From the NCBI GenBank assembly GCA_007026445.1, contig VDMD01000018.1, forward strand, positions 186,001 through 250,000: a stretch of DNA of 64,000 bases, read 5' to 3'. This document shows, in pieces, positions 9,314 to 34,773 of the stretch. The notes beneath the pieces are model-generated. The model saw only the letters and a list, made by a program, of their open reading frames with translations, was not told where the DNA came from and made no database searches. Numbering within the stretch: the stretch's first letter is position 1; the number at the start of each line of letters is the position of its first letter. The DNA comes from Schizophyllum amplum. Taxonomy: Eukaryota; Basidiomycota; Agaricomycetes; Agaricales; Schizophyllaceae. The translations under genes were made by a program, and so were the position numbers.

Positions 9314-9662
9314 GATGGGATAGTGTGTGGGTTCTTGAACGTTGAGATGGTGGTCGAGAGGATCGAGGAGGTGAAGTGTGACTGCATGTCACGTCAGAGA
9401 CGCGTGCGTGCCGGCGTGCCATTGACGCGCCACCTTCTTCCCACGGTTCCTTCTCTGAACACAGCGAAACGAGCGCTCAAAATCTCATATTCCTGAAGGG
9501 CACGTTGTACGTGGATGTAGACTTTCATAGGTGTAGCATGATAAACATTGCGTCTCTACGTTACAGAGAACACAAGTTCGCCATCTTCCCCTCAGTGGTT
9601 TCGGCCCGCGTCATCTTCCATAAACTGCCAAGTCTGCAAGAGCATCGGTGACGGCCGTAAGG
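9314..9662. other. TAM41 upstream region and 3' remnant of the DEAH gene
   Basis: Bases nearest 9314 are the TAM41 promoter side. Bases of about 9590-9655 are the severed 3' flank of the helicase gene that lies on the other side of the transposon. When flanks are joined across the duplicated CGTAAGG, the minus strand stays open in more than one frame and meets a stop within 90 bases. Confidence 0.5.
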
Positions 9663-12154
9663 CCCAGAGAGAAGTCCGTCTTGTCCTGTCCGACGAGGGC
9701 GAGCCAGGACGAAAGTATTTCAAATGATGAAAACAGTATCTGCTGAGGTCGAGCGAGATCTTGTTTGAAGTTAGTCTCCCCAGGCAGACGTTCGTAGAAC
9801 GTCTGCTGCTTGTCGCGCCCGGATCATAGGACTGCCCGCATTTGATGTCACATGACATTTTCCGCGCTTTAACCTTCCCTTTTTGTCCTGATATCCGGTC
9901 GGATCTCCGGTGCGAGTGCTTGCACTGGCAGTGTCCGGCACAGCACCGCGGCGCGCTGGGGAGACGTTGACCTTCTCCTCTGCTCGTTTGCCATGTCTTC
10001 GACAGCTGCAAATATTTTCCAGAAGCTCGTATCTGCTAAATCGACACTCCTAGCTGTATTCCACCTCATGCATATCTTTCGATCTAAGTATATGCCCACC
10101 CGTACCCACCGAAGGCGCGGCATGGCTCACACAAGTATAAAGGAAATCGAAGCTGACTGCATCGTAAATATGACGATCCCTCGGCCTCAGCACCGCTCAG
10201 CCTGAAGTTGTGTGGTGACCGCAGGTCAAGGGACGAACCGTATAATAGATAAATTGATGCCATCCTAACATAAACTTAACAACTTTAAGGAAATGCAAGT
10301 CCACCGCATCACCAACAGTCTGAGAACGTCGAGTAGCCGAACAATGTGGTCGAGGAGTCTGTAAGAGAAGCTCATGCTGCAGGTGCGCTATGTAGCGACG
10401 ACGAATTTGAAGCACGCCACATATCTCTTAAGGTGTTGGTGGTGCGTATCTCAACCTTTTAATTTTAACCCCCCTCTCGAGTCCTGAAGGCCTGACCTCA
10501 AAGATGCTGAGCTATAGCAGCACTAACACACCCTGATTTCTGTCTAGGATGCTATCAGTCCATCATACGCATTTTCGCCACTCCTCAGTCCTGACTGCCG
10601 GACGTCGCCGATGCTCGACACGGTGAGGTAGATTTCACTTTAGCAACGACGAACGAAGAGGTTATAAAGCACGGTGCATGAGCACGAACGAGGGGGATGA
10701 GGCAGACGAGCATGCAGAAAGCAGACGCAGCCGCTTGCCGCGTCGCGTCGCGCACCGGGGCACCGGGGCGTTGGCATTCGCACCGATGATCCGTCGGATA
10801 TGACTACATATAAGGGAAGTTAAAGCGCGGGAAACGTCAGGTGACTTCAAATGCGGGCACTCCGGTTATCGGGGCGCGACATGAAGCAGACTAGTTTGAA
10901 GTTGGATTTTGGTCAGAAAATGAATCACGGCCATGAATTCATGTGTGAAGACACTGTGGGAACGTTGAAGGGACTTGTAAATGTCGCGACTTTTCTGAAG
11001 GTCGTCCACGTGTTCATAAAAGGAAGGCTTCGACTTGCGGACGCGCTCTGTCCTGTTCTCTCACCATCGACGCCATGAACCGCAAGTATGCGGAGTCGAC
11101 ACCGTCTGACGCAGTGCTCCTCTCCCCCGTCCCGGATGCTACTCGCTAGCGTCCACCAATGACCACGATCATGGCCGCCGTCGAGGAAGGGCCAGCTGCT
11201 CCGAGGCCGAGCGATGGGCTGACCGGCCGTGTTGGGGTCTTTCATGTGCGTGTTCTGTGCTACAAACTTGCTTCTTGCTTAGGATGATCTCGTAGCTGAG
11301 TAACACGTCGGCAGAAGTCGAGATGACGCCAGGTCAGTCGTCTTTGTCTGCCAGGGCCCAGCACTGGCGTCGATGCGAGACGCAGCCCCAGCAGGACATA
11401 TGAATGCACCCCGCGAACGACCTACCAGAAACGCTGTTCATCCCACTTCCTACGCCTGTCGTCGCGTTAACGTATCCCAGACCCTGCGCTTCCGCGCGAC
11501 CACCCATGATCCCGATCGCGACGGTGCCGCCCAACGGTGCGGTGAGCTCTACGAACAGCTGTCTTGCGTGATACTCATGCATCTGCAGCTCGAGGAGGCG
11601 CGCTCGCCTGACGCTGAGAATGTTGTGGATGTGGTGCGTTGTCTTTGTATCTGTGGAACTCCGCTCACGCGCATCTGCCAGGTTGCCGCATAGTAAGTAT
11701 GTAAGTGAGTAAGTATATTCCAGGCTTATAGCGACGCTCGGGCCCTTCCCGGCCCATGTGGTCGCTCGCTCGCCGTGCACTGTCAGTGCATAGCTACCAT
11801 TTGGCTACCATTGCCTCTTGGAGTTCTCGTCTAGCTTATACATGTTGCATACGTGATATCCTTAGATACTGTATATATTGATTCCTGCCAATATACACTG
11901 TTGCCTGCATCTCTTCGCGTGCGTGCAGGCTCGACCTGCCCATATTTCATCAGGAGTAAAACAAAGAAGCTGTCTACCGAGGTATTGGCAGGACGAGCGT
12001 GACCGTATGCCAATTTAAGTTTCCATCAGGTTTCGACTACGCTCGCTGAGGCTCGAAATCACAATCGACGGAGATCGGATGGGGCATTGCCTGCACGAAA
12101 CCTCTCGCAGAGAGTCGTTCAAGCCCGTTCTGGGTAGACGGACTTCTCTCTGGG
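9663..12154 (-). mobile_element. 2,492-bp TIR transposon, copy L
   Basis: The ends are a perfect 19-bp terminal inverted repeat, CCCAGAGAGAAGTCCGTCT. It is flanked by a 7-bp target-site duplication CGTAAGG (9656-9662 and 12155-12161). The same element lies inverted at 15592-18083 with exactly the same length, and every stretch compared by eye was identical. Open frames inside are short (longest about 148 codons, 11334-11780) and show no DDE/D transposase, hAT or MULE motif, so it is probably non-autonomous. A 7-bp duplication is unusual: hAT and KDZ elements give 8 bp, MULEs about 9, Dada and P-like elements about 6-8. The superfamily is left open. Orientation here is arbitrary, set opposite to copy R. 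Confidence 0.9.
9784..9806. repeat. Hairpin inside the TIR element
   Basis: GCAGACGTTC at 9784-9793 is followed by GTA and its exact reverse complement to 9806. The same hairpin occurs in copy R (17940-17962). It lies in the outer subterminal part of the element, beside a GTCGCGCCCGGAT block. Confidence 0.85.
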
Positions 12155-15591: not shown

Positions 15592-18083
15592 CCCAGAGAG
15601 AAGTCCGTCTACCCAGAACGGGCTTGAACGACTCTCTGCGAGAGGTTTCGTGCAGGCAATGCCCCATCCGATCTCCGTCGATTGTGATTTCGAGCCTCAG
15701 CGAGCGTAGTCGAAACCTGATGGAAACTTAAATTGGCATACGGTCACGCTCGTCCTGCCAATACCTCGGTAGACAGCTTCTTTGTTTTACTCCTGATGAA
15801 ATATGGGCAGGTCGAGCCTGCACGCACGCGAAGAGATGCAGGCAACAGTGTATATTGGCAGGAATCAATATATACAGTATCTAAGGATATCACGTATGCA
15901 ACATGTATAAGCTAGACGAGAACTCCAAGAGGCAATGGTAGCCAAATGGTAGCTATGCACTGACAGTGCACGGCGAGCGAGCGACCACATGGGCCGGGAA
16001 GGGCCCGAGCGTCGCTATAAGCCTGGAATATACTTACTCACTTACATACTTACTATGCGGCAACCTGGCAGATGCGCGTGAGCGGAGTTCCACAGATACA
16101 AAGACAACGCACCACATCCACAACATTCTCAGCGTCAGGCGAGCGCGCCTCCTCGAGCTGCAGATGCATGAGTATCACGCAAGACAGCTGTTCGTAGAGC
16201 TCACCGCACCGTTGGGCGGCACCGTCGCGATCGGGATCATGGGTGGTCGCGCGGAAGCGCAGGGTCTGGGATACGTTAACGCGACGACAGGCGTAGGAAG
16301 TGGGATGAACAGCGTTTCTGGTAGGTCGTTCGCGGGGTGCATTCATATGTCCTGCTGGGGCTGCGTCTCGCATCGACGCCAGTGCTGGGCCCTGGCAGAC
16401 AAAGACGACTGACCTGGCGTCATCTCGACTTCTGCCGACGTGTTACTCAGCTACGAGATCATCCTAAGCAAGAAGCAAGTTTGTAGCACAGAACACGCAC
16501 ATGAAAGACCCCAACACGGCCGGTCAGCCCATCGCTCGGCCTCGGAGCAGCTGGCCCTTCCTCGACGGCGGCCATGATCGTGGTCATTGGTGGACGCTAG
16601 CGAGTAGCATCCGGGACGGGGGAGAGGAGCACTGCGTCAGACGGTGTCGACTCCGCATACTTGCGGTTCATGGCGTCGATGGTGAGAGAACAGGACAGAG
16701 CGCGTCCGCAAGTCGAAGCCTTCCTTTTATGAACACGTGGACGACCTTCAGAAAAGTCGCGACATTTACAAGTCCCTTCAACGTTCCCACAGTGTCTTCA
16801 CACATGAATTCATGGCCGTGATTCATTTTCTGACCAAAATCCAACTTCAAACTAGTCTGCTTCATGTCGCGCCCCGATAACCGGAGTGCCCGCATTTGAA
16901 GTCACCTGACGTTTCCCGCGCTTTAACTTCCCTTATATGTAGTCATATCCGACGGATCATCGGTGCGAATGCCAACGCCCCGGTGCCCCGGTGCGCGACG
17001 CGACGCGGCAAGCGGCTGCGTCTGCTTTCTGCATGCTCGTCTGCCTCATCCCCCTCGTTCGTGCTCATGCACCGTGCTTTATAACCTCTTCGTTCGTCGT
17101 TGCTAAAGTGAAATCTACCTCACCGTGTCGAGCATCGGCGACGTCCGGCAGTCAGGACTGAGGAGTGGCGAAAATGCGTATGATGGACTGATAGCATCCT
17201 AGACAGAAATCAGGGTGTGTTAGTGCTGCTATAGCTCAGCATCTTTGAGGTCAGGCCTTCAGGACTCGAGAGGGGGGTTAAAATTAAAAGGTTGAGATAC
17301 GCACCACCAACACCTTAAGAGATATGTGGCGTGCTTCAAATTCGTCGTCGCTACATAGCGCACCTGCAGCATGAGCTTCTCTTACAGACTCCTCGACCAC
17401 ATTGTTCGGCTACTCGACGTTCTCAGACTGTTGGTGATGCGGTGGACTTGCATTTCCTTAAAGTTGTTAAGTTTATGTTAGGATGGCATCAATTTATCTA
17501 TTATACGGTTCGTCCCTTGACCTGCGGTCACCACACAACTTCAGGCTGAGCGGTGCTGAGGCCGAGGGATCGTCATATTTACGATGCAGTCAGCTTCGAT
17601 TTCCTTTATACTTGTGTGAGCCATGCCGCGCCTTCGGTGGGTACGGGTGGGCATATACTTAGATCGAAAGATATGCATGAGGTGGAATACAGCTAGGAGT
17701 GTCGATTTAGCAGATACGAGCTTCTGGAAAATATTTGCAGCTGTCGAAGACATGGCAAACGAGCAGAGGAGAAGGTCAACGTCTCCCCAGCGCGCCGCGG
17801 TGCTGTGCCGGACACTGCCAGTGCAAGCACTCGCACCGGAGATCCGACCGGATATCAGGACAAAAAGGGAAGGTTAAAGCGCGGAAAATGTCATGTGACA
17901 TCAAATGCGGGCAGTCCTATGATCCGGGCGCGACAAGCAGCAGACGTTCTACGAACGTCTGCCTGGGGAGACTAACTTCAAACAAGATCTCGCTCGACCT
18001 CAGCAGATACTGTTTTCATCATTTGAAATACTTTCGTCCTGGCTCGCCCTCGTCGGACAGGACAAGACGGACTTCTCTCTGGG
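15592..18083 (+). mobile_element. 2,492-bp TIR transposon, copy R
   Basis: Inverted partner of copy L; coordinates x and 27746-x correspond base for base. The 19-bp TIRs CCCAGAGAGAAGTCCGTCT are intact. The flanking 7-bp duplication here is ACTCATA (15585-15591 and 18084-18090), different from that of copy L, which proves an independent insertion. It splits the F-box-like relic within its coding region. Equal length without a single indel points to very recent movement, gene conversion or an assembly duplicate. Confidence 0.9.
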
Positions 18084-18485
18084 ACTCATAGCCGAACGTG
18101 ATGACTTCCAAGCTTGGCCACCAGTCGGCCATCTGCTCGCAGTCTGCGTCGACCAACACGGTGTCGTGCTTGATTGAGATGGTGATTTGCGCATATTGGA
18201 GAATGCAGAGAGGCGGCGGATATCTCCCAGCGTGAGGGAGAATCTGCGATCTGAAGGCCCCTGGAGGTGAAGAGCGCGGAGGGAGTGATATGACTCAAGT
18301 TGAGAGCATATGAGGTCCAATGTACAGTGAGCAGCACGCCTTTCGCTGGACCAAAGCGCTCGTCATCATCGAACTGCGCGTCGTACAGATCGTCGATGAT
18401 GCGTATGTCTTCCAGCGGCGTGGGTGCTCGCGAAGTGAGAAGACGAGAGGCGTCTCTGAGGGAAAGACCCTTGATCTCCTGACAT
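18084..18485 (-). pseudogene. F-box/LRR-like gene relic, 5' part
   Basis: The minus strand reads 'EIKGLSLRDASRLLTSR', then 'YHSLRALHLQG...LTLGDIRRLSAFSN', and 'DADCEQMADWWPSLEVITF' up to 'GYE' at the transposon edge. These are the leucine-rich repeats and 'WWPSLEVITFG' pattern seen in the large basidiomycete F-box-associated family. An F-box itself is not present: the fragment begins about 45 bp past the end of the lyase gene. The frame shifts near 18320 and 18200. It is therefore a 5'-truncated relic later split by copy R. Confidence 0.55.
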
Positions 18486-18526: not shown

Positions 18527-20061
18527 TTACACGTAATAAGCTCCAATTGCTGTACCACTGGAAGGTAGCAAAAAGGTCGACGCTACGATACTGCCATTTG
18601 CAGCTCTGGCACTCGTCAGAACGGACGAGTCCAAGCTCATGAACGAGGAATTACTCCACGAGCCAGAGTCCCATGAGTTTGAGGATGAATCGACCTGAGG
18701 GGCAAATCAGTTATGCCTCCGCGATCTGACATGCTACCCAACTCACTTCGCTCCCAAGGGTTGTGTCGTCGCCGTTTGAGACGGCGAGGTTACCAGTCAA
18801 AGTGACGGTATAGCCGGCCTCGTCAAATTGCACGCCGGTGCCCTCGTTGTTCCAGGCTGTGTTGCGCGTGAGCTTCATGTCTCCGGGCTGACTGTTGTCG
18901 ACGAAGCCGCCCGCCGAGTTGGAGAACGCGATGCAGTTCGTGACAACGTGCGCAGCGGGCCCCTTCTCCCTTGCGTCGCCGCCGCCGCCAAGCTTGAAGC
19001 CATTGCCGTCTCCCTCGAATGGTTCGAAGTCCCAACGATTATAGCCGTTACCCCACGAGTAGGTCTCCTCGATGGTCACGGGCGACTTGAACTCCCTGTG
19101 TATGGTTAGATCTATGGCACGGCTATAGAAGATGAGGCTCCCCACCAAAGGTCTAAGCCGTCGTCGACGTTGTTCCACAGACGAGTGCCGCGTACTACGT
19201 TGCCCGTACCCGAGCCCTCCTTGATCCCGATACCGTCGGCGCTCTCGCCGTTCTTTCGGGGGTCATGGTTGCCGTAGCTGCGCAATAATTGTTAGATATT
19301 GACCGTAAAAGACTACAGTGATGGCTGAGCGCTGAGGACTCACCTGTCCACATTCTCCACTAGATTGTTACTGGACTCGCCCTGAATCTGTAGACCTGAC
19401 AGGGCAAATACGTCAACTGGACCGCGACTACGAAAGTCGCTAGACTATACCCGTCTCGTAGTTGTCCCGGACGATGAGATTGCTGTACACATTATTGTTC
19501 GAGTTGTCGGCATAAATGGCGTATGGGCCGTGTGCGATCTCAAATCCAGTGAACACCCAGTAGTCAGCCTCGATGTGGAAGATGCCGCGGTCGGAGCTGG
19601 GGATGCTGGAGTCCAGCTCGCCGGGGGTGCTGCAGAGCGTCATCTCGTTGACCTGACTATGCATGAATGGCAGCGCGTACTATGGCAGCTCTTCCCCGTC
19701 GATGAGCACGCTCTCTCCTTCATAGTTGGATATGGTATACGGCGCACTCGACTTGCCGCTCTTCGTGATCTGGATGTTCTCCGTCGGGGTATAGGTACCT
19801 TCGCGCAGGTAGATGGTGTCCCCAGCTTCCGCCTGGTCGACGGCAACCTGAATTGACGCGAGCGGCGCGTCAAGGGTACCAGCGTTGCTGTCTGAACCGT
19901 CCGGAGAGACGAAGATATCCGTAGCGCGCTTCGCCTTCACCTAAATCGGAGATGTATTCAGAAACCCAGCGCATCAGTGTATACGCAAAGACTAAAGGAC
20001 TCACCGAGCGTTTCGCCCTCGATACCGGCTGACGGCCAAGCAGGCTTGCGAGGGATACCAT
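18527..20061 (-). CDS. PL9-type right-handed beta-helix polysaccharide lyase
   Basis: The protein resembles polysaccharide lyase family 9 enzymes, which cleave pectate or related uronans by beta-elimination in a right-handed parallel beta-helix. Conserved stretches are 'DIFVSPDGSDSNAGTLDAP', 'AEAGDTIYLREGTY', 'DRGIFHIEADYWVFTGFEI', 'DSYGNHDPRKNGESADGI', 'WGNGYN...GDGNGFKLGGGG' and 'NCIAFSNSAGGFVDN'. The stop is at 18527-18529 after 'GTAIGAYYV'. The start used is the ATG at 20061; exon 1 encodes only 'MVSLASLLGRQPVSRAKRS', which lacks the hydrophobic core of a normal signal peptide. Either a short upstream exon is missed or export is unconventional. Seven or so introns. PL9 is mostly bacterial, so origin by transfer is possible but not shown. 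Confidence 0.8.
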
Positions 20062-20839: not shown

Positions 20840-23243
20840 TCACTCACTCTCCTCCGACCCCGCGTATGTCTTCGCCATCATCAAGTCGTACACCTTTTCG
20901 CTGAGCGACTCGCCCACAAACCTGATCCCCTGCCCCACATCCTTCAACAGATGCTTCGCCAGCTGCACCTCACTCTTTTTCTTCCGCCCTCCCCCCTGCG
21001 CCGCCCTCGCGGCCTCCTCCAGCGCCCTATCCTCCTTCTCTTCCTTCTCCGCCTGCCTGAACGCGTCCCGCAACGTGCGGGAGCACGGATACACCTGAAC
21101 GATCGCGCCGGCCTTCTCCGCGCTCATCTTGTTGATGCGCAGCAGCTGCTTCGCCCACGTCTCGCGTGCGGTCATGAAGCCCGACTTGGAGTTGAGCTCC
21201 TGGAACTTGGCGAAGGTGGTAAGGTACTCGCGGTGCGGCTGGTTGCGCCGGAGCGTCTTCTGGAACTTCAGGTAGCTCTCCCGGCGGATAATTTCGGAGG
21301 GAATGATGTGGAGGGGTTTGCCCTGCGGATGAATGTTAGTGAAATGCGATGGAGATGGCATTGATACTGAGGGATGGAGGCCAACCTTGTAGCGGTCTTT
21401 GACCATCTCATGGAGGGCTGCGTAATAGGCGATGGTGTCGTTGATGTGGTTGGTCTCTTTGACTCGGAAACGGTCGATTATCTGCGTCGAGCTGATAGCG
21501 GTATCGAAGGATTTGCCCTTTGAAGACTTCATTGCATCTTCTCGTCGCTTGGCGTCTACACTTGCCGCTCAATACGTGGAATGATTGGGCAAGTCATTGA
21601 TACGAACCGTACGACTCCACGACGTAGAAGACCTTCGTCAAGGCCGAGTTGTGTAGTCGGAACTGAGTGCGAGATTAGATGAAGTGCCTTCAGAAAGCGA
21701 AGCTTAGTCTCCGCACCTTCTGCTCATGGAACCGATTATCCTTGATGCTTATCCACAAATCATCGAAACGCTTGCGTTCCAAAATCACATCCAGTGCCAC
21801 CTCGTCGTAAGCGTCGCCTCGCTTGCTTCGCCGGACAGCCTTCCACGCGACGTCGCCGATCTCCAGCGCCTCTCGCACGACAGGAACACCCTTGCGTTCG
21901 AGCCGCTCGGCGAGCCCATCCCGATCCTTCTTCGTCCGGATCTCTCGAATGTCGAGGACCAGCTTGATGTCGTACCCTTCCGCAGGATTACGATTGGGTC
22001 GAAATGCTGGAAGACGACAGCTTCGGCGGACGCGTATGGGTCGTCGAGGTCAACCTCAATCTCCATGGTGGGGAGCGCAGACGAGAGACGACCGCGATTG
22101 CGCTGCGAGTGGGCAGCGATGGGCATGGACGTGGTTCTTGACATCGTCGGCACGGGCGGAGGAGGCATACTGTTGTTCAAGGAGGGCATGGTGACTGAAC
22201 GGCCAACAGGTTTGCGTGAGGTCGCGAAAGAAGTCGAAGCGAGGCCTGGAGGCTGTACAGGTAACTGGCGAGCAGGGTTGAGCGATCCAGTGCAGCGGCG
22301 CTTCTGCGATTCGTCTCTCGTCTCATCGTGTAACAAGTCAGACAACTTGCGCTTCTCGACCTGACTTGCAGGTTTGGCGTTTGGCGCAGATGCAAGAGGA
22401 TGGCCTGCGTTGACACTCCATGTCAAGAGCTGTGTCGACAGGAAGGTATGCATTGATCTTGGCGCCAACCGGAAAGCGTTCGAGAAGTTTGTGGGCCAAA
22501 GGATGACTTCGCTTGACTTAGGGTACTGGATCAAGTAGCATGCCGGGAACATATTTTCGCGGAAGTGGGCATCGTCGCGCTTGCGGACAGGCTTGAAGTC
22601 TACATCTGAGAAGATAAGTTCAACTGATATGTACTTTTTATGACAAGGATGACAACACACCAAGGTATGTGAACAAGAAGGAGTCTGCGTTGGCGAGTAT
22701 CGGTTCGGCTTGCGACGTCAAGGATGCGGGAGCGGGCTCATTGATACCTGAGGATGTCGACGGCGGCGGGAGAGGAGGGAGCTCGCAGGGCCGCCACGCA
22801 TCATGGAAGGTGCAGAAGCTTGGCGAGATAGTGATGCGGTTCTGGATGATGAGGTACTGTTGGTGTCTGCTTTTCTGGGTCTACCGCGCTTCTTCGGCTC
22901 GACAGCAGTCGATGGACCCGCAACAGGGCAGGCTCAAGGTGGGCGCTCATGTAGCCATTATTTGCTTCTGCTTCTCCTTGAGCTTGCTAACGATCTTGGG
23001 GCCTATGCCCTTCAGACGTGCAGCATCTTCGATGCGGGCGAGAACGTCTGGGCATTCCTTCATGCTCTTCCAAGCCCTGCGGAATACCATCTGGTAGTTG
23101 GACCCTGGGCTACTTAGTTATAGACTGTGATTTAGAATTTAGGCGTACCATCCTCTTGTTCGTCGCATAACTCTTGAAGCCAAGATAGGAGCTGCGGGTT
23201 CGCGCATGTCGTCCGCGACTTGGAACCACTAGTACGTGCCATG
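20840..23243 (-). CDS. MUS81: Mus81 crossover junction endonuclease catalytic subunit
   Basis: Mus81 pairs with Eme1/Mms4 to cut branched DNA (3' flaps, nicked Holliday junctions, stalled forks) in the nucleus. The ATG at 23243 starts 'MARTSGSKSRTTCANPQLL', the N-terminal helix-hairpin-helix region ('DAARLKGIGPKIVSKLKEK'). A long disordered linker follows, then the XPF/ERCC4 nuclease: 'LVLDIREIRTKKDRDGLAE', 'ALEIGDVAWKAV' and the intact catalytic motif 'ILERKRFDDL' with 'IKDNRFHEQK'. The C-terminal half has 'IDRFRVKETNHINDTIAYY', 'LHIIPSEIIRRESY' and the HhH2 region 'NKMSAEKAGAIVQVYP'. It ends 'LSEKVYDLMMAKTYAGSEESE'. One missing base near 21985 is needed to join 'ILRKG' to 'YDIKLVLDI'. It lies 384 bp downstream of EME1. 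Confidence 0.93.
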
Positions 23244-23627
23244 GCAGCGCGCCAAAACAATAAGGAAAAGCTCGATGCCGCGTAGGGTTTCACAAGGCCC
23301 TCTCGAGGTGATGCTGGTTGAGTTCAAGTTGCGATTCGTTCTCAACGCGACCTGTCACAGTGTGACATGTCGCGTCCTGGTCGCCCGTCAAGCGGCGAAA
23401 TGCAGTGTATGAACAGTCCAAGATTGATGTCATTATACCAAAAGATGAAGCGAGATATGCTAGGGCAAGAATAAAGGAGTATAGAATATAATAGGGGTGA
23501 CGGATCCGTATGTTTAGCGAGAGCGAGAAGATAAAAAGGTATATGTTAGAATACATAGTACGAGCCAGAGTGAAGCTCAGCAGCATCCTTAGATGATCTC
23601 GACGTTCACAAAGCCTCGGAAAGCCTA
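23244..23627. promoter_or_regulatory. Spacer between EME1 and MUS81
   Basis: This 384-bp AT-richer spacer must contain the EME1 terminator and the MUS81 promoter. No further gene is visible. Confidence 0.45.
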
Positions 23628-25287
23628 TCAGTCGTTATCTTTGAATACCAGCTTCAAGGGGTCTTCGCCGTATAGCACGTCGTGAACACGCTTCGAAAGC
23701 GCAGGACCGAAGCTCTCTCTCGTGCGTTTTCTTCCATCGGCCGTAAACTCGACCTATGGACATAGTCAGTTGAACGTTAATCATCATAGTCATCCCGGCA
23801 CACACTTGGAGACGCGCCAACAAATGCGGCCCATGCTGCGGCTCAGCCTCGTACGCCCGGTACAGACTGTCCATTGTCGGATACGCCTGCACCACCGCCC
23901 GCGCGTGGTCCTTCGTCAGCCGGTGCACGCTCGCCAGCGCGCCCGCCCACGTCTCCGCCGATCCTTGCCCTTCGGTAGACGCGTTTCGCTGCAGAACGGC
24001 AGGTGCGACCGCTCGAGGTACTTGTGGATCCGGTGGCCAACGTCGCATGCCATGTCGTATAGCCGCTGCACCACCTCCGCGGGCCGCTCGGCGTACATGT
24101 GGTAAGCGTCGTGCGCCATCTCGACGGCAAGGAGCGCGCGGTCGGCAGCGCCGCGCGTGGCGGAAGGCAGCCTGACCATGCCGTGCACGAGGATGACGGC
24201 TTGGCGGCGGATGCCGCGCAACTTGAGGCTCTCGCAGAATTTGTCGACGAGGACGACGAGGGTGCCGTTAGATGCGTGCTCCGCGAGCTTCGGTGCACTG
24301 AGCCAGAGAACCGCAGTTTGGTCCCATTCGTCCCGCTCATCGCAAGGCTTCCAAATGGATTCCTTGACGTTGTACTCCTTGGTGATGTGTCTCCGGAAGC
24401 GGACAGTGTCGTAGCCGGACATGGGATCGTCCTCAACATCTACCTTGCCGCCGTGCTCGCCGACCCTCTCGCTGAGTTCGGTGACAACGTTGAACCAAGC
24501 CTTCTGCAGGGATTTAGAGACGACGATGGTAGTTTCGGCGAGTGTCTGCTTGCGGTCCAGCACGAGCTTGTTGGCGGATTTGAATTCGCTTTGGATTCGC
24601 TTCTCGGTCGCAGCAGCTGCTTTCTTGCGAGCCCGCTCTTCCTCTCGTTCTCTTTTGGCGGCTTCTTTCTCGAGCTTAGTGGTCTCTCTCTCAAGGCGTT
24701 TGGCTTCCTGCGGACGATGAGACGGACGAGCGCGCTCATAAGCGCGTTTCTACTCACCTTCTTCGTTTCGTTCTCCCTCCTCTGTTCCTCGGTCACCTTG
24801 GGCACGCGGCGGGGCTTTTTCACTGGCGTTGGCGGGTCCGTCTATTTGTGATCAATCATTGAGGGCTGGACGATACCCAGCTCGTTGCACGGACCTCGGA
24901 CCCACTGTCATCTGCAAAATCACGAGTGCGCTTGCTACCTGCCGAGGAGCCGCTGTCTCTCGTCTTGAGATCATCGCCGCGCCGCCCGGAGGTCCTCCTG
25001 GACCCAGACGGTCGCGTGGTTAGAGCAGTGAATTGCTGCGATCCGGGTACAGGGAACTCGTCGTCAGAGATGGCGCCGTCGCTATCGCTCTCAACATCGA
25101 GCACGTCTTGAGGAAGACTCGGAGACCGAGCCAGTGGCGGACTGGACGACGCGGGCACTTCGTCCGAGTCGGACAGGTCGATGACATCGCCGGCTGACAG
25201 TTGCGACGAAGGAGGGGCTGTTGCTTGGCTCAAACTGAGGTCCTCTTCATCGCTATCTGAGATGTCAATGACATGAAGGGCGGGCAT
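23628..25287 (-). CDS. EME1: Eme1/Mms4 non-catalytic partner of Mus81
   Basis: Eme1 is the catalytically dead XPF-family partner that Mus81 needs to bind and cut branched DNA. From the ATG at 25287 the protein opens with two acidic hydrophobic motifs, 'HVIDISDSDEED' and 'DVIDLSDSDE', and a disordered Ser/Asp-rich tail. A Lys/Glu-rich coiled coil follows ('KRLERETTKLEKEAAKRER'), then the family signature 'ANKLVLDRKQTLAETTIVV', 'YDTVRFRRHITKEYN', 'VLWLSAPKLAEH' and 'YLERSHLPFCSETR'. The C-terminal HhH2 reads 'SVHRLTKDHARAVVQAYPT', and the end is 'LYGEDPLKLVFKDND'. No ERKxxxD nuclease motif is present, as expected. The intron near 24845-24905 uses donor GTCCGT. A base seems missing near 23975, before 'AETWAGALAS'. 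Confidence 0.9.
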
Positions 25288-25589: not shown

Positions 25590-28583
25590 CTAACGCCTCT
25601 GGCGTGTTTGTGGGCCCGGCGTTCGCGCACGCATCGATGCCGCGCGACCTCTCGGCGGCTCCTCCACTATCTCGACCTCGCCCTCGCTCGACAGATCATC
25701 CTCGGGCAAAGCACCTTTCCGTCGCCCAGAGCTCTTGCCCACGTCGACCTTGCCACATCGACCTGCCGTCCCTCGTCCGCGTCACTATCGCTGCTCGCAT
25801 TCCCTCCGCGATCGTCCGATCTGCCCGCAAAGGACACGCGCCGGCCGCGTGAGCGGCTGCGCGCGACGAGCGACGGACGACACCGCTCGCCCTCCGCCGC
25901 GCTACTATCGTCCGCAGCGTACGGGTCGTCGGCAGCGTACTGTCCACGCGTCGATGTATGCGATGAAGAGCGTGCCCTTGAGTACCCCGCACCGGGGGAC
26001 TGGTACGTCGACCCCTGAGCAGGAGAGGGGTATGTACCAGCAGCAGAGTACGCCGCTGCCGGCGCGGCGTAGCCCCCGACCGGCGGATAAGACAGGCCAG
26101 GCAGCGGAGGATACGCCACACCTGCCGGGTACGACGGCTGCTGTCCGGGTGGACAGGTTGGTTGCTGCCCTGGCGGATACGCCGGCTGCTGTCCAAAAAG
26201 CGACGCCAAGTGGTGCATGAGCTGCCCGACGACGTACTGCGCGTGCGCGGGGTCGACGGCGAGTGGCGGGTACGGGATTGGCGGAGGCGGGTCGGCCGGT
26301 CCCGCGTACGGCTCCTGAACAGCGTACGGCGGCGGTTCTGGCATGACAGATGGTGTGCGAGGGATGGTAGATCGCGCACGAGGCACGGCGGACTGTTTAC
26401 GAGGAGAGGCGGATTGTTTACGAGAAGCCGTTAACGGAGCGCGAGGAGCACGGCTGGCGCTTCTGCCCCGCTCTGATTTCTCCCGGCACTCACCGTCCGA
26501 GCCCGGCTTCTCGGGGGCAGCCGCACGAAGTGGGACGCGCGCACTGGTTGGTTCCGGTCCCGCCGAGCACCGCGTACTGTCGTGGGATTCGTTGGCCGGT
26601 GATGCAGGGCGCGGAGACGCGGGACGCGCACGAGATGCAGAACGCGCTCGCGATGAGAACGCGCTCGCGATGACGAACGTGCTCGGGATCCTGTATCTGG
26701 TTGACATGGCGATGGAGGCCGTGTCTGAGATGCAGGTCCTGGTCGAGACGCGGCACGCGACTTGGGCCGCCCACGCGACGGTGTCTTTGCACCTTCACGC
26801 GACGCTTGCTTCGCACCTTCTGTCGATGGCATGAGAGACAGTCTTCACGATCATCAATGGCTTGCGTACCATGCCTGAGGTGGGCGGGCGGGACAGGAAT
26901 TTCTACGTAGGCGATGGGACGCGAGGCTTTGTTTGCGCCTGGCAATCGCCGGGCCTTGTTCGCGCCGGATGGTTGCGGGACTTTGCTCGTGCTTGGTGAT
27001 TGTGGGGCTTTGCTCGCGTTTGGCGGTTGTGGGGCTTTGCTCTCACCTGGCGGTTGCGAAATTTTGCTTGCACCTGGCGGTTGCGACGCCTTGTCGGGGC
27101 CTGGTGGCTGCGAGGCTCTGCCGGCCACTGGTAGTGGCGAGGCCCTGCCAGCCTCTCGTGGTCTCGCAGACCCCGTAGCATTGTGAGAAGGCGTGTTGGG
27201 GCCGACGCCCTCAGATTTGTCTGCAGAGGCGGAGGGAGGGGCGTCTGTCGGTTCGTCGACGTCCATATCGGACGCCGAAGATCGTCGTTTGCGTTTCTTC
27301 GTGAGGGCAGGCTGAGGTGCGGAGACGTCCGTGGCGCGCTGCTTGCCTCTTGCCTTCACAGACATCTGTGGCGCGGATGGCGCGCGTTCTGGAGCAGGCG
27401 TCCTGGTGGGCGAATGGTCTTCGGGAGGGGTGTTCTCGAAATCAAAGGGGTTGCGCGTGACGCCGGTGGGCGTACCGACCGTCGAGGTCCACTTCCTCGG
27501 CTTGCGCTTTGAAGATAGCATTTTTGATAAATCGAGTCGGGGTATGGGGGTGGATTGGGGCGTGTGCAATTTCGATGAGGAGGGCGTTTGTTCGTCATCG
27601 GGGGCAGGTGAAGAGGAACGGCGTGAGGGCTTTATGGGACTGGACTGGGTTCTCGAAAATCGCGCTCGGGCTTTCACTGGAGAGGATGGGGCGAGTGGAG
27701 AAGAAGACGTTGGGGGTGAGGAGGGTGGTAGGGGGGACGAGGGAGGGGCGTATGCAGGGCTTTCCTGGGTATATGACCGTTGTTCTGAGCATGGTGTGGG
27801 CGGTGGCGGCAGGGAGGAGGATGTCTGAGATCGCGGGGGCGTGTAGAGCTGGAACGGATACGGACGCGCCGGCGGTGGCGAGGGCAGGGCGTCAAAGTCG
27901 CTCTCGGACTCCTCCTTCGGCACGCGGTAGATGATGCTCGCCTCGGAGCCCATCCCCCAGTCGTCCAGCTCGTCGTCCGACTCGAGTTCGATGATGGTGC
28001 GTGGTGGCGGCATGCCTTCGTCGTCGTCGCAGGCGTCGGATGTGGCGTCTACTTCCTCTCCTTGAATCAATCGCCGCATCTTCTCGGCCTCCATGAACTC
28101 GGTGATCTCCTCTTCTGTGAGGGGCTGGCCGAGCGAGGGCTGGTGCGCCGCTTGTTCCGCCGCGAGCTTGGGCGCGAACGCATCGAGCTCGTCGTCCGAT
28201 TCGTCCGGACCGTGCTCCTCCTCCTCCTCCTCTGGTTGCTCGTCCGGCGTCTCGCTCTCCTCATCGTCGTCCACGGACGGCTGATGCACACCGAACTGCT
28301 TGACGGGGGAAGACGCGAGGATGCCACGGTCCTTGATGAAGCTCATTTCGCGCAGGTCGATAATGTCATCCTCGTCGAGGGTCCGGCTGTATCGTTCCTC
28401 GAGACTTGCCCAGCTGTCGAAGAGGCGCGATAAGGACGCGGCCTTTTCGCGCTGGATTTCGTCGGGCGGCAGAAAGCGAGCAGGCGTGACGGTGCGCAGG
28501 CGCTTCCTGGGCGGCGGCGCGCAGTCCAAGTCCGTGCGCAACGTCGGCGGCGTCGCAGAGGGTGTGAAGAGTGGCGGATTCAT
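25590..28583 (-). CDS. Large disordered protein, candidate Scm3/HJURP CENP-A chaperone
   Basis: Near its N-terminus (residues about 45-90) the protein reads 'SLSRLFDSWASLEERYSR', 'EDDIIDL' and 'FIKDRGIL'. This resembles the conserved Scm3 block (a helix, then D-E-I-D-L and a D-R/N-G-H-L turn) that binds the centromeric histone CENP-A/Cse4. The rest is acidic, Pro/Ser-rich and disordered, with 'KARGKQRATD', a basic 'KKRKRR', seven tandem 9-residue repeats, an RS-rich zone and a Gln/Pro/Tyr-rich tail 'QQPAYPPGQQPTCPPGQQ'. The most protein-like frame changes three times (near 26845, 26650 and 25740), each time as if one base were missing, before ending at 25590-25592. The reading from 26490 to 28583 is uninterrupted. 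The function is inferred from one short motif. Confidence 0.5.
26925..27113 (-). repeat. Seven tandem 27-bp (9-residue) repeats
   Basis: Bases 27113 down to 26925 encode exactly seven 9-residue units of the form SQPPGxxKA: SQPPGPDKA, SQPPGASKI, SQPPGESKA, PQPPNASKA, PQSPSTSKV, PQPSGANKA, RRLPGANKA. They lie inside the candidate Scm3-like gene. Each unit carries one Lys, so the tract is a regularly charged, flexible spacer. Copy number is likely to vary between strains. Confidence 0.9.
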
Positions 28584-31013: not shown

Positions 31014-32313
31014 ATGGACGACGCAGTTCGGAAGCGCAAAGAGCTACGGGAACAGCTGCTCGGTCATTCGCGAGGCAGCCTCGGCCAGTTGACGGAGGAC
31101 GAAGAATGGTGGGCTGCCCACCAGCCTTGGCTCGAGAGCTGTGGCTACATCCTTCGGCAACGTTATCGTCCTGGCTGGGAAGCGTCCTGGCATGAATCTC
31201 GCAAGGAATTGCTGGACTGCGAAGATCATCTAGCAATATCTGTACGTCGGCTTGCTTTACGTTCGGTCTCCTCTGATTCTGTTCATAGTATTGGTTTCTA
31301 CTCGACGCCACCCGAGCGTCCGATGGACAACCTGTCATATTCAAGCGCATCAACGTCATGCAGTTTCCCGACGAGGTTGAAGTAACTTCCATGCTGTCCT
31401 CGCCTCATTTGGCAGCCGACCCGCGTAACCGATGTGTGCCCTGCCTAGAGGTGCTGCGTGTTCCCAACGAGGACAACCTTTCAATCATCGTATTGCCTTT
31501 GCTCAGAGACTATGCCGACCCCAGGTTTGACACGGTCGGGGAGGTTGTCGATTGTTTGGGCCAAATCTTGGAGGTGTGCCACATATCATCTGCCTTACGC
31601 AACTGCCCGTCATGATCATACAGTGTGTGCAGTTCTTGCACGACCATCATATCGCGCATAGGCAAGTCTAACAGTCAAGAGAGCGTCTAAACTAACTTGC
31701 ATCGTAGGGATATCAAAAGCGGAAATATCATGGTGGACGCTTCCAACATGTATCCTCGACCTTTCCATCCACTTGATCAGACCATGCGTGCGGACTGGAG
31801 AGGCAGGGCACGTCATTTTTCGCGTACCGAACGACCTGTGAGATATCATCTGATTGATTTCGGATTGTCTACCGATTTCGAGGCGACGGAACCGCCGTAC
31901 CTCGACTACCCTGTCTGGGGAGGCTACAAGACCGTGCCCGAATTCCAGGGAGACGGCTACTACAAGCAGTACGACCCGTTCCCTACCGATGTCTACTATC
32001 TCGGCACTTGGATCCGCCAGGACTTCCTTGATGTACGTAACACGCAGCGGACCCCTGCAAAGCTGATCTATAGCGATAGGGTATATTTGGCGGGGAGAAC
32101 AACAATCTGGTCGTCACCTCGAAGCGCCTTGGGCTGGAATTTCTACGGCCCCTGGTTAACGAAATGACGCGCGAGGATCCAGCTGCGCGGCCGTCCATCG
32201 ACGAGGTGATGGACAAGTTCAACGCGCTTGTCTCTGACCTCTCAGCTGGAAGCTCCGCTCTCGCGTGGCGAAAGAGAATGATCACCCACTATACAGTATG
32301 TACCTCTCTGTGA
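31014..32313 (+). CDS. Basidiomycete-type protein kinase, tandem copy 1
   Basis: A eukaryotic protein kinase fold with canonical catalytic residues: Lys in 'GQPVIFKRIN', the loop 'HRDIKSGNIMVD' and 'LIDFGLSTDF', then 'REDPAARPSIDEVMDKF'. The N-terminal 'EEWWAAHQPWLESCGYILR' is shared with copy 2 and seems particular to this family, which I recognise only as a group expanded in mushroom-forming fungi. Five exons; the start is the ATG at 31014. Near 32243 one A is missing relative to copy 2 (CTCAGCTGG versus CTCAAGCTGG). The last residues are therefore out of frame and a stop appears at 32311-32313. The sequence matching copy 2's C-terminus continues to about 32386 in the other frame. Substrate unknown. 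Confidence 0.82.
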
Positions 32314-32386
32314 CGCATTGGTGTCGGCGTCTGAAGTTGGTCGCCACGCGGCGGCCTGCTATACCGTGTCCGGACGGCACCCGCTA

Positions 32387-32895
32387 ACCCTCAATGTCGA
32401 GCCCGATTATGTTGCTGGCGACATTGTGGCGCGCGGTCTTGCCCTTCCGTACTGTTTGTTTGTGAGGATAATGTACCTTGCGTACTGTGACTCGCTATTA
32501 TATATATGTAATGCTGCGAACGACGTTTGACCACGAAGTGTAGTACCAACAAAAGGCCAACAAACCGCTGTCCCCCAGGTAAACACCGACAAATAAAGGG
32601 CTTCGCCGGTCGGACTTGAATGCGGCGAATGCTCCTCACCCACTTTGTTTCAAGTCTCAAGCGGTTCCATCCCAAGCTCTTATGTGATTACACAAGGAAA
32701 GGGATGCAAATGTGACTGTGAGAACGTCGGGACTCAGCACGAACCTAACCAGAACCTAACCAGCCGACACAATCCAGTAGCGGCGCGGGCCGGTACAATG
32801 GTTCATGAGCGGAGTACGCCGGCCGCCGCCCTGCAGTATCTTTTCGCACGCGACCTTACATCTTGCTTACATCTTCTTTACCAGTTCACCTTGCC
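32387..32895. other. Spacer between tandem kinase genes
   Basis: No gene. It probably contains the terminator of copy 1 and the promoter of copy 2; the last 20 bp before each kinase ATG are similar. Confidence 0.5.
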
Positions 32896-34282
32896 ATGGA
32901 CGACGCAGAGCGCAAGCGCAAAGTGCTGCGCGAGCAGCTACGTGCAGGTGGTTCGCGTCTGAGTTTCAGCCGATTGACCGAGGGCGAAGAGTGGTGGGCT
33001 TCCCGCCAACCTTGGCTCGAAAGTTGTGGCTACATCCTTCGACAACGCTACCGTCCTGGTTGGGAAGCGTCTTGGCACGGCACTCAAAAGGACAGCTTGG
33101 AATGCGAAGACCATATGATGATATTCGTACGTGAATATACTTATTTCGTGGCAATCGGTCTTTTTTGATCAGCTTATCAGCATTGGTTCCTGCTCGATGC
33201 TACGCGAGCGTCCGATGGAAAACCTGTTATACTCAAGCGCATCAACACCGTGCAATTCCCCGATGAGGTTGAGATAACTTCAATGTTGTCCGCATCTCCC
33301 TTCGCTTCCGATCATCGTAACCGCTGCGTTCCCTGCCTAGACGTGCTGCGTGTTCCCGACGAGGACAGTTTGTCTATCATCGTACTTCCTCTACTAAGAC
33401 GTTACGATGATCCGCGATTTGACACAGTCGGGGAGGTTGTCGATTGTTTGGGGCAGATCTTGGAGGTGTGCCACATATTGTCTGCTTATGGACTGCTCTT
33501 CCTGATTATGCAGTGCGTACAATTCTTGCACGACCATCAGATTGCGCATAGGTGATCCACATGCCGTCGTAAGTATTTCCTGAGCTGAATTGCATTACAG
33601 GGATATCAAGAGCAACAACATCATGATGGACGCTTCCAACATGTATCCTCACGCATTTCATCCACGCGACCAAACCATGCGTGCGGACTGGGAAGGTAGG
33701 GCGCATCATTATTCGCGCACCGAACGACTTGTCAGATACCACTTGATCGACTTCGGCTTGTCCACCGATTTTGGGGTGACGAGACCGCCATATCTCGACT
33801 ACCCTGCATTGGGAGGCTATAAAACCGTACCCGAATTCCAGGGAGACGGGTACGACAAGATGCACGACCCATTCCCCACCGATGTATACTACCTTGGTAC
33901 TTGGATCCGCCAGGATTTCCTTGAAGTACGTAACTCTCAACGAACCTCTGCGTAGCTCATATGGCGCTTGTAGGGCAGATTTGGCGGCAGGAACAACGAC
34001 AGGGTTGCCTTCTCGAAGCGCCTCGGGCTGGAATTTCTACGACCTCTTGTCGATGAGATGATGCGCGAGGATCCGGCTGCGCGACCATCCATCGACGAGG
34101 TCATGGACAAGTTCAATGCGCTTGCCTCCGGCCTCTCAAGCTGGAAGCTCCGCTCTCGCGTGGCGAAAGAGAATGACCACCCGCTGTACAGTATGTACCT
34201 CTCTGTGACGCATTGGTGTCGCCGTTTGAAGCTGGTCGCTACGAGGCGGCCAGCTATACCCTGCCCAGACGGCACTTGCTAA
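32896..34282 (+). CDS. Basidiomycete-type protein kinase, tandem copy 2
   Basis: Close duplicate of the gene at 31014. It keeps 'EEWWASRQPWLESCGYILR', Lys in 'GKPVILKRIN', 'HRDIKSNNIMMD', 'LIDFGLSTDFG', 'TDVYYLGTWIRQDFLE' and 'REDPAARPSIDEVMDKF', with introns at the same places. The C-terminal basic tail 'HWCRRLKLVATRRPAIPCP' is intact. All catalytic residues (K, HRD, DFG) are present, so an active Ser/Thr or dual-specificity kinase is likely. No transmembrane or targeting segment is seen. Function is unknown; the pair arose by a tandem duplication of a unit of about 1.9 kb. Confidence 0.85.
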
Positions 34283-34773
34283 CCATTGAATGTCACGCCC
34301 CATCATGTTGCTGGCGACATTGTGGCGCGCGGTCTTGCCGCTCTTTTGTGCTTTTTTTTTTTTTTTTTGGGGGGGGGGGGGGGCGGATGCCGTGCTTATG
34401 TTGACTTGTTATTATATACCTATGCAGTACTGCCGAACGTTGCTGCCACGGAGTACACTTGCGAAAAATGGACAACTTACGTCTGTTCGCCAGGGAAAAC
34501 ACCTGCCGCATTGACCCTCCTGGAAATCCCTCTGAGTAGGCGTATTCGCCATCAAAAGCATATCAAAAAAAATACGGTTTGTTCAGCAAGAAAGGAACAT
34601 ATGCACGAAATTGATTTGTTACTTACGAGTGATACAGGACGTCGAGCAGGCCGTTGACGTTCCCCTGACAGCCGTCAGGATTCGGTTCGACGCAGGCTCT
34701 GCAGGAGGTCACATACTCTGCCGCTTTGGCGTGTTTCGCGTTTTGTTGGCTTCTGAAGCGCTGCAAATCCACC

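What the first reader, a model, noticed from the sequence alone, without database searches (positions are those of the whole stretch)
20840..25287. Both subunits of the Mus81-Eme1 nuclease are neighbours in tandem
MUS81 (20840-23243) and EME1 (23628-25287) lie head to tail on the minus strand, 384 bp apart. They act only as a heterodimer. Seen: catalytic ERKRFDDL in Mus81 and none in Eme1, with both helix-hairpin-helix ends present. I am not aware of this linkage in yeasts or animals. It could reflect origin of the Mus81/Eme1 pair by tandem duplication, or selection for co-regulation or co-inheritance.
Basis: partly seen in the sequence, partly recalled or inferred. Interest (0 to 1): 0.75.

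Follow-up and report, generated by a model that had tools for sequence, protein, structure and literature searches.

The report
Neighbouring MUS81 and EME1 genes
In the mushroom Schizophyllum amplum the genes for the two halves of a DNA-repair enzyme lie next to each other; the genes are ordinary, their being neighbours may be chance, and the less expected point is that the mushroom MUS81 proteins compared here lack a DNA-binding domain seen in the other relatives compared.

Summary
MUS81 (23242-20840) and EME1 (25287-23628) lie head to tail on the minus strand, 385 bp apart, one place each in a 49.65 Mb assembly that matches Schizophyllum amplum. Orthology holds: MUS81 has HHH_8, ERCC4 with ERKRFDD and the shared C-terminal domain; a mushroom EME1 profile ranks EME1 structures above EME2 and MUS81. 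Correction: neither reading frame is intact here (four breaks in MUS81, one in EME1), though 86 of 86 comparable invariant MUS81 residues are kept. Linkage: S. fasciatum lists both proteins on contigs of one length; S. commune is inconclusive; Rhodotorula taiwanensis tags are far apart. Local tandem duplication is refuted as origin: the two proteins are alike only in the C-terminal region, and each has its own orthologue in animals. Co-regulation is untested; the spacing resembles gene pairs co-transcribed in Ganoderma. Chance adjacency kept within the genus is the default. Unasked-for: 0 of 17 sampled mushroom MUS81 proteins match the MUS81 winged-helix domain, against 29 of 29 other hits; 10 of the 14 that reach the linker carry an AT-hook-like RGRP motif there.

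The parts
20840..23242 (-). MUS81 gene (ATG 23242, TGA 20842-20840). Exons by splice sites and homology: 23242-23149, 23104-22661, 22605-21717, 21662-21608, 21555-21386, 21322-20840. Reading frame broken three times between about 22965 and 22779 and once near 21985.
   Evidence: Pfam; homologues
22965..23242 (-). MUS81 N-terminal helix-hairpin-helix region (HHH_8), two exons
   Evidence: (residues 13-78 of the model, E 6.8e-16)
22662..22964 (-). MUS81 linker with KKRGRPRK (AT-hook-like, about 22894-22871); the non-mushroom hits have the winged-helix domain between HHH_8 and ERCC4. No YVPxYRSG-like stretch seen in the three frames of 22960-22661.
   Evidence: (three frames, by eye)
21386..21986 (-). 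MUS81 ERCC4 nuclease domain (approximate ends) with ERKRFDD at about 21779-21759
23628..25287 (-). EME1 gene. Exons 25287-24895, 24841-24758, 24707-23806, 23753-23628; reading frame broken once near 23963.
   Evidence: genome search; profile match to EME1 chains
23243..23627 (-). 385 bp between EME1 stop and MUS81 start, 47.5% GC, one TATAA at 23437; would hold the EME1 3' end and any MUS81 promoter
25590..28583 (-). next gene upstream on the same strand: open frame 28640-26493 with an Scm3 domain (CENP-A chaperone, recalled); protein-like stretches continue in other frames to about 25590, some 300 bp before EME1 (continuation judged by eye)
   Evidence: (PF10384 1.7e-09)

Best explanation
These are the ordinary single-copy MUS81 (catalytic) and EME1 (non-catalytic) genes of Schizophyllum amplum. 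Their products should form the Mus81-Eme1 heterodimer that cuts branched DNA such as nicked Holliday junctions, D-loops and stalled forks (inferred from orthology). They came to lie next to each other by rearrangement in or before the ancestor of S. amplum and S. fasciatum, not by duplication of one from the other (order of events inferred). The neighbourhood has so far no shown function. Each gene probably has its own promoter, with occasional read-through from EME1 into MUS81 possible, as reported for close same-strand pairs in other mushrooms.
For: Domain content; all 5 distinct solved sequences matching MUS81 at E <= 0.001 are MUS81; the mushroom EME1 profile ranks EME1 above EME2 and MUS81; single places; same listed contig length, 308227, for both S. 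fasciatum proteins, and 557239 for both S. amplum proteins, equal to contig C90; little mutual similarity. The window's MUS81 model keeps 86 of 86 comparable columns invariant in the seven other mushroom rows, 2 more being X or gap; the seven others, taken out in turn, depart at 1 to 19 columns. Intergenic 385 bp with a TATAA at 23437.
Against: Frame breaks in both genes would mean loss of function if real, and long conserved frames nearby are open. The complex, its activity and expression were not measured. S. commune representatives lie on contigs of different listed length (262437 and 241161), which neither supports nor excludes linkage there. Same contig in S. fasciatum is not shown to be adjacency.
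Confidence: 0.72

Rival explanations
1. The pair is kept together because co-expression matters: EME1 and MUS81 are co-transcribed, at least partly as a read-through dicistronic RNA, matching the supply of two subunits that work only together.
For: Same strand, 385 bp gap. In Ganoderma lingzhi pairs on one transcript are on average 434 bp apart against 1356 bp for other neighbours (PMC11590231, passage). Polycistronic transcripts involve up to 8% of transcribed genes in Agaricomycetes (PMC4503453, abstract passage). Linkage is also indicated in S. fasciatum. Dothideomycetes are reported to lack both proteins (PMC7230313, passage).
Against: The gap to the unrelated Scm3 gene upstream is about as short (some 300 bp). 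Rhodotorula taiwanensis has MUS81 at tag 5222 and the EME1 line at tag 4418 (PMC5766836). In Plicaturopsis polycistronic transcription may interfere with the downstream gene (PMC4503453). A TATAA at 23437 may mark a separate MUS81 promoter.
Confidence: 0.22
2. The two genes arose from each other by a tandem duplication at this place.
For: Adjacent, same strand; both carry the EME1-MUS81_C domain, and profile comparison joins their C-terminal regions (E 1.4e-08).
Against: BLASTP between them finds only 28 residues at E 0.017; each has its own orthologue among solved animal structures.
Confidence: 0.01
3. The locus is decaying: both genes are pseudogenes in this strain.
For: Four frame breaks in MUS81 and one in EME1, while nearby long conserved frames are open (789 aa with the Tsr1/BMS1 C-terminal domain, 404 aa chaperonin, 494 aa E1 dehydrogenase).
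Against: 86 of 86 comparable invariant MUS81 positions kept; protein-like sequence resembling relatives continues on both sides of the breaks; the Scm3 gene next to them also seems to change frame (by eye). An error in the assembly is the simpler reading.
Confidence: 0.08
4. The neighbourhood is an assembly misjoin.
For: The assembly holds a near-identical stretch on two contigs elsewhere (C90 and C287, 3540 nt with 4 mismatches).
Against: S. fasciatum, presumably assembled separately, also lists both proteins on contigs of one length.
Confidence: 0.02

Closest known systems
MUS81-EME1 of solved structures (PDB 2ziv, 4p0p, 9f98; human by recall)
   Same: Same two subunits, catalytic ERK motif in MUS81 only, C-terminal EME1/MUS81 domain in both
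   Different: Human genes lie on different chromosomes (recalled); Pfam finds no MUS81 winged-helix domain in the 17 mushroom proteins, whereas human MUS81 has one (recalled)
Schizosaccharomyces pombe Mus81-Eme1 and budding yeast Mus81-Mms4
   Same: Orthologous complex (recalled)
   Different: Genes unlinked in both yeasts (recalled)
MUS81 and EME1 of Rhodotorula taiwanensis (PMC5766836, table passage)
   Same: Both listed in another basidiomycete
   Different: Locus tags 5222 and 4418, not neighbours; the table gives 0 as the number of EME1 homologues beside the tag, so its EME1 is doubtful
Polycistronic gene pairs of mushrooms (PMC4503453, PMC11590231; passages seen)
   Same: Close same-strand neighbours, similar spacing
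   Different: No transcript evidence here

Membership tests
MUS81 | ERCC4 nuclease domain with ERKxxxD motif | tested here: met
   PF02732 7.4e-27, ERKRFDD
MUS81 | N-terminal helix-hairpin-helix domain (HHH_8) | tested here: met
   PF14716 6.8e-16
MUS81 | C-terminal EME1/MUS81 (HhH)2 domain | tested here: met
   PF21292 5e-08
MUS81 | Best solved relative is MUS81 | tested here: met
   All 5 distinct sequences at E <= 0.001 are MUS81
MUS81 | Winged-helix domain between HHH_8 and ERCC4 (usual in the other hits; not treated here as defining) | tested here: not met
   No PF21136 at E <= 1 in 17 of 17 mushroom hits, among them the deposited S. amplum model, which skips part of the linker; present in 29 of 29 other hits; none seen in the three frames of the window's linker DNA (by eye). 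The typed window model left the linker out, so that call does not test it.
EME1 | C-terminal EME1/MUS81 domain | tested here: met
   PF21292 1.3e-08
EME1 | No catalytic motif of the nuclease domain | tested here: met
   No ERCC4 match, no ERK motif seen in the sequence (by eye)
EME1 | Closer to EME1 than to MUS81 | tested here: met
   Profile of 21 homologues: EME1 1.3e-11, EME2 3.1e-08, MUS81 3.1e-05
EME1 | ERCC4-like fold of the middle region | tested here: inconclusive
   S. commune homologue modelled (mean pLDDT 68.1, pTM 0.42, core blocks mostly 75-95); the fold search was not accepted
Mus81-Eme1 complex | Obligate heterodimer with structure-specific nuclease activity | not testable with these tools
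   -
Polycistronic mushroom gene pair | Both genes on one RNA molecule | not testable with these tools
   Only spacing compared

The most novel reading that the evidence does not exclude
The mushroom Mus81-Eme1 is a remodelled nuclease: MUS81 lost its winged-helix DNA-binding domain early in Agaricomycetes and uses an AT-hook-like linker in its place, and in Schizophyllum the two subunits are made from neighbouring, partly co-transcribed genes. That the domain is not found in the sampled proteins is shown; the time of loss, replacement of its role by the AT-hook-like motif, and co-transcription are guesses.
Probability: 0.12. Interest if true: 0.6.

Novelty: new variant of a known kind. Interest (0 to 1): 0.38.

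Why it matters
If the linkage were found across mushrooms, it would be a natural test of whether eukaryotes gain from keeping genes of obligate protein pairs together. The missing winged helix gives a natural deletion of a DNA-binding domain in a conserved nuclease, which bears on what that domain is needed for in choosing between flaps, forks and Holliday junctions. As it stands, the neighbourhood itself is a modest curiosity.

Tried and rejected
Instead I compared contig lengths in the protein lists. Only three named species occur on both sides: S. amplum and S. fasciatum (same length for both genes) and S. commune (different lengths, clusters of 11 and 12 members whose representatives may come from different strains: inconclusive). 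The other 12 named mushroom species on the MUS81 list (Ramaria included) do not occur on the EME1 lists; unnamed entries could not be assigned.

Papers: the 7 papers were opened for passages; only PMC5766836 gave locus tags for the two genes. Passages of PMC2944786, PMC8196990 and PMC8893723 gave no locus for either gene. Searches listed 1, 3, 15 and 1 papers; beyond those just named I saw only the listings. One search was too loose: 1,242 papers, none of the 15 listed holds Mus81. I saw no report of this linkage in these six searches, which cover one library of open papers and mostly titles and abstracts. The other four paper searches had other aims: looked for the genome paper and did not find it, one search found PMC2944786, another the polycistronic-transcript papers. 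No search was left to ask whether the missing winged helix is in print.

A genome search for the winged-helix family in this assembly gave nothing, but no control rang either, so it shows nothing.

Pseudogene and misjoin readings were considered and set low, see rivals. For the chaperonin gene at 28.75-30.72 kb I read the DNA by eye and saw no frame break; this was not computed.
Full report
What is there. The window is bases 186001-250000 of contig C90 in an assembly of 49,653,570 bases in 309 contigs. C90 is 557,239 bp long, the very contig length listed for the Schizophyllum amplum proteins P0001 (EME1) and P0005 (MUS81), so the window is taken to be from S. amplum. On the minus strand EME1 runs from ATG 25287 to stop 23630-23628 and MUS81 from ATG 23242 to stop 20842-20840, with 385 bp between them. 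Splice sites (GT...AG) and homology give four EME1 exons and six MUS81 exons. Each gene has one place in the assembly.

Identity. MUS81 carries HHH_8, ERCC4 and the EME1/MUS81 C-terminal domain, with the motif ERKRFDD; EME1 carries only the C-terminal domain in Pfam. Against solved structures MUS81 matches only MUS81 chains at E <= 0.001 (5 distinct sequences, best 3.4e-27). The single EME1 sequence matches EME1 chains weakly (best 4.4e-04); a profile of 21 homologues ranks EME1 (1.3e-11) over EME2 (3.1e-08) and MUS81 (3.1e-05). A model of the S. commune homologue was made (mean pLDDT 68.1, pTM 0.42) but the fold search was not accepted, so the fold adds nothing.

Frames. They are not in this assembly: judged by homology, the MUS81 protein changes frame three times in the linker between about 22965 and 22779 and once near 21985, EME1 once near 23963. 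The deposited S. amplum models skip these places as if they were introns: P0005 lacks the linker stretch with KKRGRPRK and the conserved LVLDxRE stretch, and P0001 lacks the stretch around the EME1 break. S. fasciatum and S. commune keep the counterparts of these stretches, which is why I prefer breaks. The window's MUS81 model keeps 86 of 86 comparable columns invariant in seven other mushroom rows, two more being X or gap; the seven others, each taken out in turn, depart at 1 to 19 columns. This speaks against long decay. Some conserved frames nearby are long and open, which goes against a uniformly poor assembly, while the Scm3 gene next door seems to change frame too (by eye). Assembly error is the likeliest cause; it is not proven.

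Linkage. Of the three named species on both sides, S. amplum and S. fasciatum have both proteins on contigs of identical listed length (557,239 and 308,227); S. commune representatives lie on contigs of 262,437 and 241,161 bp and tell nothing. Same contig is not the same as adjacent. In Rhodotorula taiwanensis the tags are 5222 and 4418 (PMC5766836, passages; the same table gives 0 homologues for EME1). Yeast, human and plant genes are unlinked as far as I recall. With an assumed 15,000 genes, adjacency of one named pair has a chance of about 1.3e-4, but many pairs could have been remarked on.

Origin. MUS81 and EME1 of S. amplum are alike by BLASTP over 28 residues only (E 0.017), and profile comparison aligns only the C-terminal region (78 columns, probability 95.5%, E 1.4e-08), while each finds its own orthologue among solved animal structures (human by recall). 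Tandem duplication at this locus is excluded as the origin of the pair.

How it works. By orthology the products form the Mus81-Eme1 nuclease. Whether the neighbourhood does anything is open. Mushrooms do make polycistronic RNAs, up to 8% of transcribed genes (PMC4503453, abstract passage), and in Ganoderma lingzhi such pairs lie 434 bp apart on average against 1356 bp for others (PMC11590231, passage). The 385 bp here fits, but the gap to the unrelated Scm3 gene is about as short, and a TATAA at 23437 could serve MUS81 alone. Default: chance neighbours kept within the genus.

A second finding. None of the 17 mushroom MUS81 hits (P0005-P0021; P0008 has no name and was put there by its 64% identity to the query) matches the MUS81 winged-helix family PF21136 at E <= 1, while all 29 other hits do. 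The groups were drawn after I had seen this column, but they coincide with the named taxa; that the named ones are mushrooms and the named others are not is recalled, not looked up. Three of the 17 (P0012, P0018, P0019) do not reach the linker. Of the other 14, ten hold RGRP within basic residues ahead of the ERCC4 domain; P0005 lacks it because its model skips the stretch that the window's DNA encodes; P0009, P0010 and P0011 lack it. In the other group RGRP occurs in 3 of 29, after LVYE. Pfam's AT-hook model is only weakly matched (3 of 17 members, best E 0.24, under its cut-off), so AT-hook-like is as far as I go. No winged-helix-like stretch is seen in the three frames of the linker DNA (by eye). 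No named basidiomycete outside the mushrooms is in the sample, so the time of loss is unknown, and I had no search left to see whether this is published.

Verdict. Real genes, real adjacency, evidence of linkage in one more species of the genus, duplication origin excluded, co-regulation untested. Modest interest, raised a little by the missing winged helix.

Noticed in passing
window 22964-22662 and P0005-P0021: Mushroom MUS81 proteins lack a match to the MUS81-like winged-helix domain (0 of 17 at E <= 1; 29 of 29 others have it); 10 of the 14 that reach the linker carry an RGRP motif ahead of the ERCC4 domain.
   Followed up: partly
window 9652-12154 and 15592-18094: Perfect inverted repeat, arms 2503 nt, 100% complementary, 3437 nt apart. 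Parts recur on other contigs; copies on C266 and C288 match about 7-121 and 1240-2503 of the arm but not the stretch between, and copies on C223 and C168 match about 121-1248, so one repeat element seems inserted in another.
   Followed up: partly
window 28640-26493 (minus), continuing to about 25590: Open frame with an Scm3 centromere-protein domain (PF10384, 1.7e-09), the next gene upstream of EME1; seems to change frame twice (by eye).
   Followed up: partly
G000:C90:15056-15595 and G000:C287:98385-98924 (L001, L002): A further ERCC4 gene, XPF-like by eye, lies on the same contig about 190 kb away; the C90 and C287 stretches differ at 4 of 3540 positions, suggesting unmerged haplotypes or overlapping contigs.
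   Followed up: partly
P0004, P0051, P0052; P0055, P0056; P0062, P0067: Roridomyces roridus lists three EME1-like proteins, Mycena epipterygia and Mycena pura two each.
   Followed up: no
window 25287-25150 (EME1 N-terminus): VIDISDSD and VIDLSDSD stretches, like SUMO-interaction motifs (recalled), are conserved in part in the four EME1 proteins compared.
   Followed up: no
window 31263-32389 and 33155-34284: Three direct repeats of 78-90% identity at a spacing near 1893 bp, looking like a tandem gene duplication.
   Followed up: no
window 18714-19940 (minus): Frames with Pel9A-like beta-helix (pectate-lyase-like) matches downstream of MUS81.
   Followed up: no
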